Below are positions 8,418-11,526 of a DNA stretch of 64,000 bases, one piece after another (the first letter of the stretch is position 1; every line of letters starts with the position of its first letter). Below the pieces are notes generated by a model that made no database searches, was not told the origin of the DNA, and was given only the letters and a program-made list of their open reading frames with translations. The position numbers were made by a program, and so were the translations under genes. The stretch covers positions 1,612,001 through 1,676,000 of the forward strand of contig AP017959.1 of assembly GCA_002356215.1 (NCBI GenBank), written 5' to 3'. This DNA is from [Synechococcus] sp. NIES-970. Lineage in GTDB: Bacteria; Cyanobacteriota; Cyanobacteriia; Cyanobacteriales; MRBY01.

Positions 8418-9890
8418 ATGTATATTGTCCAGATTGCTTCGGAATGCGCCCCCGTCGCGAAGGTAGGTGGACTTGGAGATGTGGTTTATGGGCTCAGCCG
8501 TGAGCTTAGTCTACGGGGCCATTGCGTTGAAATCATCTTGCCCAAATATGACTGTCTCCGCTACGACCATATTTGGGGGATGCACGAAGCCTACAAAGAT
8601 CTGTGGGTTCCCTGGTTTGGAGGCGCGATTCACTGCACCGTTTATTACGGCTGGGTTCATGGTCAGCAGTGTTTCTTTATTGAACCCCACTCCGGTGATA
8701 ACTTTTTCAATCGGGGCTTTTTCTACGGGGCGACAGATGACCACATGCGTTTTGCCTTCTTTAGTAAAGCAGCCCTTGAGTTTTTCCAAAAATCTAATAA
8801 ACGCCCAGATGTGATCCACTGCCATGACTGGCAAACAGGCCTTGTGCCGGTAATGCTCTTTGAAATGTATAAGTGGCACGGCCTCTGGAATCAGCGGATT
8901 TGTTACACGATTCATAACTTCAAACACCAGGGGATCGCCGGGGCTGACGTTCTCTGGGCGACAGGTCTAAATAACGAAGGTTACTATTTTCACTACGATC
9001 GCCTCCGGGACAACTTCAACCCCTTTGCGCTCAACTTCATGAAGGGGGGGATTGTTTATGCCAACGCCGTTACTACCGTTTCCCCCCACCATGCTTGGGA
9101 AGCCCACTACACTGATATCGGTTGCGGCCTCAGTCATACTCTCCATCTCCACCAGGATAAATTCAAGGGGATTCTCAATGGGATCGACTACAGCATCTGG
9201 AACCCGGAGGTAGACCACAATATCGAGATGCAATACGGCTGGGATAGCCTCGAAAATAAAGCGAAAAATAAAAAAGTTCTGCGCGATCGCCTCCTACTTG
9301 AAGACAACGACAGGCCGTTGATCGCCTACATTGGTCGCCTTGATGATCAAAAAGGTGTCCACCTTGTCCACCACGCCATGTACTATGCCCTCAACCGGGG
9401 GGCCCAATTTGTACTCCTGGGGTCAGCCACCGAAGGCTCGATTAATTCTTGGTTTTGGCACGAAAAATTCCACCTCAATGACAATCCCAACTGCCACATC
9501 GAATTAGGCTTTAATGCAGAGCTGTCTCACATGATCTATGCGGGGGCTGACATGTTGGTAGTCCCCAGTAACTATGAACCCTGTGGCCTCACCCAGCTGA
9601 TCGGTCTCAAGTATGGTGTCGTGCCCATTGTGCGTGGTGTCGGTGGTCTGGTGAGTACTGTTTTTGACCGCGACCATGATGATACGCACCCCCCCCAAGC
9701 GCGTAATGGCTATGTCTTTTATCAAACAGACCAGCATGCCCTAGAATCGGCCATGGAACGGGCGATCGGGCTTTATACGGTATATCCCGAAGAATTTAGA
9801 AAACTCCAAATTCAGGGGATGCAATATGACTACTCTTGGAATAATCCGGGCAGCGAGTACCTCGAACTCTACGAATTTATCCGCGCTTAG
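8418..9890 (+). CDS. glgA: Glycogen synthase (GT5 family)
   Basis: A 490-residue starch/glycogen synthase that extends alpha-1,4-glucan from ADP-glucose. The ADP-glucose binding KVGGLGDV motif is at residues 15-22, HCHDWQTGLVP near 134, GILNGIDYSIWNP near 255, YIGRLDDQKG near 307 and the C-terminal NYEPCGLTQLIG near 385-396. The start has a clear AAGGAG ribosome binding site at 8407-8412. Cyanobacteria often carry two synthases. This sequence looks like the second, GlgA2-like type, but that subtype call is from memory. It stands alone and is divergent from ureD; glgP is far away at 43-46 kb. Confidence 0.92.
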   Translation: MYIVQIASECAPVAKVGGLGDVVYGLSRELSLRGHCVEIILPKYDCLRYDHIWGMHEAYKDLWVPWFGGAIHCTVYYGWVHGQQCFFIEPHSGDNFFNRGFFYGATDDHMRFAFFSKAALEFFQKSNKRPDVIHCHDWQTGLVPVMLFEMYKWHGLWNQRICYTIHNFKHQGIAGADVLWATGLNNEGYYFHYDRLRDNFNPFALNFMKGGIVYANAVTTVSPHHAWEAHYTDIGCGLSHTLHLHQDKFKGILNGIDYSIWNPEVDHNIEMQYGWDSLENKAKNKKVLRDRLLLEDNDRPLIAYIGRLDDQKGVHLVHHAMYYALNRGAQFVLLGSATEGSINSWFWHEKFHLNDNPNCHIELGFNAELSHMIYAGADMLVVPSNYEPCGLTQLIGLKYGVVPIVRGVGGLVSTVFDRDHDDTHPPQARNGYVFYQTDQHALESAMERAIGLYTVYPEEFRKLQIQGMQYDYSWNNPGSEYLELYEFIRA

Positions 9891-10011
9891 CATCATTAGG
9901 ACTAGATGGATCAAGTCTGGGGCGTCAACTGTTCAGACTGAAACAATAGCAACCAACAATCTCCAGGGAACTCGTTACCATGGTAGGCAAGTTTTTTAGT
10001 TGCCTGTGCCT

Positions 10012-10293
10012 ATGGATGCTTTTAGTCCCTATCCCCCCGCATGGATCAAGAATGCCAGCCATGCTCTGAGTTTTCACTGTCCCAGTTGTGAGGCGTTACC
10101 CCATGATGCCCAGCGAGCTTGGTTAAACCGTTATGCCCCTGTGACAGATGCTCTCCACCGACGGCGCTGGCAGGAATTTTATGAATGTCGATGTGGCACA
10201 GTATGGTGGGCCTGGAGCAGTGATCGGCCCCCTTCCCCCTACCAAAAAGATGACCAAGGCGATCGCGATGAGTTCCGCCGGGGCTTATTTTAA
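10012..10293 (+). CDS. Small cysteine-containing protein of unknown function
   Basis: A predicted 93-residue protein. It contains a CPSC pair near residues 24-27 and an ECRCG pair near 60-64. The spacing suggests a zinc-ribbon fold. The sequence is rich in Trp and Arg (RRRWQEFYECRCGTVWWAW). I chose ATG 10012; TTG 10000 and GTG 10006 are possible but lack a better ribosome site. I do not recognise the family. It lies between glgA and a cyanobacterial hypothetical gene, on the same strand as both. Confidence 0.6.
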   Translation: MDAFSPYPPAWIKNASHALSFHCPSCEALPHDAQRAWLNRYAPVTDALHRRRWQEFYECRCGTVWWAWSSDRPPSPYQKDDQGDRDEFRRGLF

Positions 10294-10436
10294 GGGGGTG
10301 TTGTTATCGTTGGGGGGCTCTGGGCTTTGGCAATTCTGAAAAAAAGCGGGGGTCTGGGGGGCGATCGCCCCTTGGTTGGTGCGGCATTCTCCCTTTCCTT
10401 TTGGCGCATCATCCCGGACAATAAAGCTCTCTAAAA

Positions 10437-10477
10437 TATCTAACGCAGTACTTAGAACCCCATTACTGCGTTAGATA
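10437..10477. promoter_or_regulatory. Perfect 14-bp inverted repeat before an unknown gene
   Basis: TATCTAACGCAGTA (10437-10450) and its exact reverse complement TACTGCGTTAGATA (10464-10477) flank 13 bases. It ends 32 bases before the start at 10510 and is not followed by a T run, so an operator or mRNA leader hairpin is more likely than a terminator. A TAAAAT at 10484-10489 could be a -10 element. Confidence 0.7.
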
Positions 10478-10509
10478 GGCCAGATAAAATCACTAAAATT
10501 GGGACATTC

Positions 10510-11526
10510 ATGGTCAAAGCAATCGAACAGGTCCGCCGTGATTTAACCGCGATTAGTGAGCGGGTGAACGTGGTACGTGAGGCGATCGCCGTTGTCTACA
10601 ACGACTATCTCAATTGTCTCGGCGAAAGTCTCAAGCGCCACCTCATTTTAGCCAGCTACCAGCTTTGTACCCAGGTTTATCCCCAGAAATTCTTAGAATT
10701 ACCCCATAATCAACGTCAGGCACTCCAGCAGGATTTGCGGCAGCTGGCCACTGGGCTCCAGGTTCAGTTGCCAGCATTGCTCAGCGACCTTCCAGATGAC
10801 CCAGAAGAGGCAGACCCCGAGCCAGAAGTGGTAGCGGAATTTTTTATGGATGAGGGAGAGGAGGAAGACCTCGATCAAGAACTTTTTGAGGTTTTTGAAA
10901 GTCTTGATCAGGCGATCGCCGCAGACCGAGCTGCCCCCAAAGCAGAACAAACACAATCACCCGACCAGACGGCAGACGAAAATCATGAGCCCCGGCGGGA
11001 ACTGTCCCAATTGGCCGAACGAATCGCCGATAGCCTTGCGGAAATGATGCAAGCACCCCAGACAGAAGCTCCCACCGATGAAAATAGCCCTGATTACTGG
11101 TTGGAGTGGTGTAAAACCATCGAAAAACGCCTCCGCCATACCCTGAATTGCGCTTCCCAGGCTGTTAATCGTCGTCTTCAGGCCGCCCAAATTCTCCCGG
11201 AGAATATTCCCTCGACAGTGCTCGATATGGCAATCCAAGCGGATAATCACCAACAGAGTGGCCAGTTGCCCAGTCACTTGGTGAATGTCATGATCGAGGC
11301 AGAATTAGGCCAAAAAAAGAAAAAACGTCGCACTCGCCTCACTGCCATCCATCTCAAGGTTTCGGAGGTGGAGTTTAGTGAACCGACGGTATCCGCCCAG
11401 CGGCGACGGCTCCGGGAACAGGTGATCAAGCTCCGTGACCTGCGCCAAGATTACCAGAGGGCAAAACGAAATTTGGCGATCGCCGAGGCTGAGGCCGCTT
11501 GGCGGGCCAGTTGGTATGAAGGTTAA
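10510..11526 (+). CDS. Conserved-looking cyanobacterial protein, function unknown
   Basis: A 338-residue soluble protein that I cannot assign to a named family. The N-terminal 90 residues look helical. Residues 95-165 are strongly acidic and low in complexity ([11 protein letters not shown]). Residues 180-260 form a second ordered region with [16 protein letters not shown] basic patch KKKKRRTR lies near 271, and the last 50 residues are an Arg-rich coiled coil. No membrane segment or signal peptide is visible. It is preceded by the perfect inverted repeat at 10437-10477. Its stop codon interlocks with that of pyrC on the opposite strand. Confidence 0.75.

What the first reader, a model, noticed from the sequence alone, without database searches (positions are those of the whole stretch)
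10437..10477. Perfect 14-bp inverted repeat before an unknown cyanobacterial gene
TATCTAACGCAGTA and its exact complement flank 13 bases, ending 32 bases before the start at 10510. A 14-base perfect match is unlikely by chance, and no T-run follows, so an operator or a regulatory mRNA hairpin is plausible.
Basis: seen in the sequence. Interest (0 to 1): 0.52.

Follow-up and report, generated by a model that had tools for sequence, protein, structure and literature searches.

The report
One-off hairpin before a cyanobacterial gene
A perfect 14-base-pair hairpin really does sit just before an unstudied cyanobacterial gene, but it occurs once, is missing from the related species examined, and looks like a recent, ordinary hairpin rather than a conserved regulatory switch.

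Summary
The inverted repeat is real: TATCTAACGCAGTA / 13 nt / TACTGCGTTAGATA at 10437-10477, ending 32 bases before the ATG at 10510. It is rare for one 64-kb window (about 0.03 expected), but a 464-kb sample of the genome holds four hairpins of this size or larger. It is single-copy in its genome, absent from all five congeners searched although all five carry the gene, and its 9-bp core pairing is found in 1 of 386 Cyanobacteriota genomes, its own. It is also not a dispersed repeat. What is conserved in the genus is the block just upstream (10359-10425), probably the promoter; this would put the hairpin at the start of a fast-changing leader. Best reading: a lineage-specific leader hairpin, perhaps born in one replication template switch, acting at most as a passive RNA structure. 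Interest is low.

The parts
10437..10450 (+). left arm of the inverted repeat, TATCTAACGCAGTA
10451..10463 (+). 13-nt loop CTTAGAACCCCAT
   Evidence: no better than chance pairing with the ribosome-binding region (19% of 1000 shuffled loops pair as well)
10464..10477 (+). right arm, TACTGCGTTAGATA
10359..10425 (+). block conserved in the genus upstream of the same gene (HIP1 palindrome GGCGATCGCC, then ATCCTCCC-like and GACAAT-like stretches); probable promoter region by inference
   Evidence: 56 of 67 columns identical to each of two congeners; six-way alignment; no promoter called there by the consensus scan
10433..10436 (-). AAAA on +, i.e. TTTT directly after the stem on the - strand; weak terminator-like tail
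   Evidence: (terminator score -13.7, below the threshold of 0)
10510..11526 (+). 338-aa gene of a cyanobacterial protein family without a Pfam model; predicted mostly helical with long helices
11523..12560 (-). pyrC (dihydroorotase), convergent, overlapping the 338-aa gene by 4 bases

Best explanation
A lineage-specific, single-copy hairpin in the transcribed leader of the 338-aa gene. Inferred: transcription starts just after the conserved block that ends near 10425, so the RNA begins a few bases before the stem and folds into a 14-bp stem-loop near its 5' end. Inferred: the perfect pairing most likely arose in one replication template-switch event in a fast-changing leader. Its effect, if any, is passive (hindering 5'-end-dependent decay or slowing polymerase), with no dedicated protein or ligand. 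Shown: the repeat, its single copy, its absence from relatives, the conserved block upstream. Not shown: transcription start, RNA folding in the cell, origin by template switching, any effect on expression.
For: Single copy in the genome. Absent with up to 3 mismatches from 5 of 5 congeners, all of which carry the gene. Leaders of the two nearest congeners align with only 1-2 gap columns across the region but with 5 of 14 (arm 1, both) and 2 or 7 of 14 (arm 2) identical bases, so this is replacement within the leader, not insertion of a mobile element. The core 9+9 pairing is in 1 of 386 Cyanobacteriota genomes. The block 10359-10425 is conserved (56 of 67) while the leader is not. The stem folds strongly on the + strand and leaves predicted start-region pairing unchanged, arguing against a translation switch. 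Template switching creating perfect hairpins is described in PMC8794818 (abstract and one Results section read).
Against: No strain of the same species could be examined, so conservation within the species is untested. Polarity of the change cannot be settled: both arms are near random identity to the congeners. No start-site data; the only promoter candidate called by the consensus scan lies inside and after the right arm (10472-10499), and if it were the real one the hairpin would not be in the leader. Four hairpins this long in 464 kb, against about 0.24 expected, suggest that the genome keeps some such hairpins for a reason.
Confidence: 0.5

Rival explanations
1. A weak intrinsic terminator on the - strand. 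pyrC is convergent with the 338-aa gene and overlaps its end by 4 bases, so pyrC read-through runs antisense through the gene; the hairpin followed by TTTT would stop it before the gene's promoter and the + strand genes upstream (97-aa ORF and glgA).
For: TTTT follows the stem directly on the - strand; TTTT occurs at about 2% of intergenic strand-positions, so about 4% for either end. It is one of two best, though weak, terminator candidates on that strand between 12000 and 10300. In the congener G002 the upstream neighbour lies on the - strand instead, so a barrier could matter more in this species. Collision of sense and antisense transcription, with PCC 7002 among the data, is reported in PMC10349824 (search listing with start of abstract only).
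Against: Score -13.7, below threshold. A T-rich candidate nearer pyrC (11324 in own, score -12.0; a similar one at X-relative 818 in both congeners, -5.6 and -16.6) scores about as well. Congeners with the same overlap lack the hairpin.
Confidence: 0.2
2. A DNA operator for a repressor or activator that controls only this gene.
For: Perfect dyad between a probable promoter block and the gene.
Against: No other copy; half-sites at about chance level; not in congeners; the arms' centres are 27 bp apart, about 2.6 turns, and the spacer is long for a dimer site (general knowledge); no DNA-binding family found in the 338-aa protein.
Confidence: 0.1
3. A T-less (I-shaped) terminator on the + strand for the upstream 97-aa ORF / glgA.
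For: Upstream genes are on the + strand; no other terminator is called in 9850-10650; PMC7406221 (passages) uses hairpins without a U-tract as one terminator class for PCC 7002.
Against: It lies 143 bases after the ORF's stop and downstream of the conserved block; it would also stop the gene's own transcript if that starts at the block. + strand score -74.7.
Confidence: 0.1
4. Chance or neutral hairpin with no effect and no special origin.
For: About 0.03 per 64 kb is about one or two per 3.1-Mb genome.
Against: It lies in a short intergenic gap next to a start codon, and observed long hairpins exceed chance (4 in 464 kb).
Confidence: 0.1

Closest known systems
5' leader stem-loops that alter mRNA decay (the ompA type, recalled)
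   Same: stable stem near the presumed 5' end of the mRNA
   Different: start site unmapped here; no conservation; no measured effect
Intrinsic terminators, with U-tract (L-shaped) or without (I-shaped), as discussed for PCC 7002 in PMC7406221 (passages)
   Same: intergenic perfect stem; TTTT on the - strand
   Different: 13-nt loop, AT-rich stem base, score below threshold on both strands; upstream of a start, not close after a stop
Template-switch-born hairpins (PMC8794818)
   Same: long perfect stem appearing in one lineage in otherwise homologous sequence
   Different: ancestral state cannot be inferred from the relatives on hand

Membership tests
intrinsic terminator | stable hairpin followed at once by a U-rich tract, score above threshold | tested here: not met
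   d+ = -74.7, d- = -13.7; score formula and threshold recalled from E. coli work
conserved cis-regulatory RNA (riboswitch, leader element) | match to a described family | tested here: not met
   only a tRNA in the window at Rfam gathering scores
conserved cis-regulatory RNA (riboswitch, leader element) | structure conserved upstream of orthologs with covariation | tested here: not met
   not at the orthologous place in 5 of 5 congeners
regulon operator | several related sites in the genome | tested here: not met
dispersed repeat / MITE | multiple copies, or insertion visible against relatives | tested here: not met
   single copy; leader length kept in the two nearest congeners; no match in plasmids or phages
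5' leader stabilising stem-loop | located within the transcribed leader, near the 5' end | not testable with these tools
   needs start-site mapping; position relative to the conserved block is suggestive only
5' leader stabilising stem-loop | longer mRNA half-life than without the stem | not testable with these tools
   needs RNA decay measurement

The most novel reading that the evidence does not exclude
A newborn regulatory hairpin: in this species alone a template switch created a stem that now controls the 338-aa gene, or protects it from pyrC antisense transcription, after the gene's upstream neighbourhood was rearranged.
Probability: 0.1. Interest if true: 0.4.

Novelty: new member of a known kind. 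Interest (0 to 1): 0.15.

Why it matters
If it has an effect, it would be a clean single-lineage case of a perfect hairpin arising in a leader whose orthologs lack it. Otherwise it is a caution: a long perfect dyad before a gene is not by itself evidence of conserved regulation.

Tried and rejected
Dispersed repeat: rejected. Exact IR pattern in genome contigs: no hit (near-identical genomes may be left out there). Mobile insertion: rejected because the leader length is kept in the two nearest congeners. Loop to ribosome-binding-site pseudoknot: -6.7 kcal/mol, matched by 19% of 1000 shuffled loops. Start-codon occlusion: the predicted pairing of the start region is the same with and without the stem. 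A similar dyad in a congener (G005:C51, two half-sites 17 bp apart) lies inside a predicted coding region on the other strand. Hairpins before other homologs: 7 of 69 with arms of 9 or more against 7 of 175 control upstream regions (the 69 are those of 80 loci with a start codon at the match start). They looked promising (L045: 16-bp arms, 13-nt loop, -75 to -31), but in other cyanobacteria the gene follows a tsf-like gene (9 of the 10 loci read, recognised by eye; confirmed as tsf by NCBIfam in the 2 scanned), so they sit in another neighbourhood, differ in sequence, and several resemble terminators; not taken as the same element. A first control (-600 to -481) gave 0 of 69 at 9 or more but is mostly coding, so I do not rely on it. 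Structure of the protein: mean pLDDT 78.9; no PDB match with E of 0.001 or less among 198 at E of 10 or less; uninformative.

Errors of mine: the G004 locus was read on the wrong strand; it was redone correctly, where G004 was checked by folding and alignment but the script's perfect-repeat scan was not rerun. One search timed out and was replaced.

Full report
Observation. The inverted repeat is exactly as described: 10437-10450 and 10464-10477, 14 of 14 complementary, 13-nt loop, ending 32 bases before ATG 10510. It is the only pair with separated arms among nine inverted repeats listed in the window (the other eight are overlapping, imperfect palindromes, several around GCGATCGC). As RNA, 10420-10530 folds at -26.3 kcal/mol, z -4.5. 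A Markov simulation expects about 0.03 perfect hairpins with arms of at least 14 per 64 kb (one event in 30 replicates). A sample of 464 kb of the same genome (window plus 20 stretches taken at intervals) has four hairpins with arms of at least 14, this one included, and 25 with at least 11. Many of these lie just after gene ends, several with T-runs. So it is not chance for the window, but it belongs to a class the genome contains.

Setting. Upstream on + lie glgA (starch/glycogen synthase family) and a 97-aa ORF ending at 10293; downstream is the 338-aa gene, which overlaps convergent pyrC by 4 bases. The 338-aa protein has no Pfam match and no NCBIfam match above cut-off, is found in many cyanobacteria (101 loci passed, 80 kept), and is predicted to be mainly long helices with a conserved N-terminal part and C-terminal end. 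In other cyanobacteria it usually follows tsf: 9 of 10 loci read have a tsf-like upstream protein, and in both loci scanned the neighbours are tsf and recG. In the own genome, G002 and G003 it sits beside pyrC.

Comparison. The held genus has six genomes including the own one; all six carry the gene. The hairpin with up to 3 mismatches is in the own genome only. A script found no perfect repeat of 8 bp or more from -600 to +100 in L009, L010 and L013, and one unrelated one at -405 in L012; G004 was folded separately and shows no comparable stem. In the two nearest congeners the leader aligns with only 1-2 gap columns across the hairpin, but identity is near random: arm 1 5 of 14 with each; arm 2 2 of 14 and 7 of 14; loop 5 of 13. 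The block 10359-10425 keeps 56 of 67 positions with each, and the HIP1 palindrome and an ATCCTCCC-like stretch persist in all six (the own sequence has ATTCTCCC). I infer that this block holds the promoter; the consensus scan did not call one there, and its one candidate, at about the number expected by chance, lies inside and after the right arm (10472-10499). If that candidate were the real promoter, the hairpin would lie at or upstream of it, not in the leader.

Distribution. No other copy in the own genome; half-sites with up to 2 mismatches: 18 sites including the two arms, against 12 for the reversed control, and fewer than control in each of the five congeners. The core CTAACGCAG/CTGCGTTAG with 10-35 between is in 1 of 386 Cyanobacteriota genomes, the own one. 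The exact dyad is not in genome contigs, and 10340-10560 has no match in plasmids or phages.

Mechanism. The stem does not change predicted pairing around the start codon and the loop does not pair with the ribosome-binding region better than shuffled loops, so a translational switch is not favoured. On the - strand the stem is followed by TTTT; the terminator score is -13.7 there and -74.7 on + (threshold 0). Since there is no room between pyrC and the convergent gene for a terminator, a - strand role is a fair rival, but a T-rich candidate nearer pyrC, with a counterpart in both congeners, scores about as well. I judge the most likely case to be a hairpin recently formed in an unconstrained leader, plausibly by template switching (PMC8794818: abstract and section 5 read), with at most a passive effect on the RNA. 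This origin is inferred, not shown: the relatives are too diverged to tell which arm is ancestral.

Literature. PMC7406221 (RNA decay in PCC 7002; passages read) found stabilising motifs mostly in 3' UTRs, no enriched motif upstream in its discriminative motif search, and a few 5' UTR motifs from a statistical model; it does not address this gene in the passages seen. Searches listed no paper naming this hairpin, which is only a limited search.

Verdict. Observation right, conserved-regulator interpretation not supported, ordinary lineage-specific hairpin most likely.

Noticed in passing
10359-10425: Block upstream of the 338-aa gene conserved across the six genus genomes (HIP1 palindrome followed by an ATCCTCCC-like stretch); the exact ATCCTCCC is found upstream in only 2 of 69 wider homolog loci, both congeners. 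A better footprint target than the hairpin.
   Followed up: partly
10510-11526: Cyanobacterial protein family without Pfam model, usually after tsf (and before recG in the two loci scanned) in other cyanobacteria but beside pyrC here; invariant C-terminal IAEAEAAWR motif.
   Followed up: partly
11523-11526: Convergent genes (338-aa gene and pyrC) overlap by 4 bases with no room for terminators; the overlap is kept in congener G002.
   Followed up: partly
10293-10358: Synteny breakpoint: downstream genes match congener G002 in order and strand, upstream genes (97-aa ORF, glgA) do not.
   Followed up: partly
L043, L046, L049, L086, L098, about -115 to -58 before the homolog: Recurrent ACAGGTCA...TGACCTGT hairpins in the gap before this gene in several Nostocales; perhaps tsf terminators or a shared element.
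   Followed up: partly
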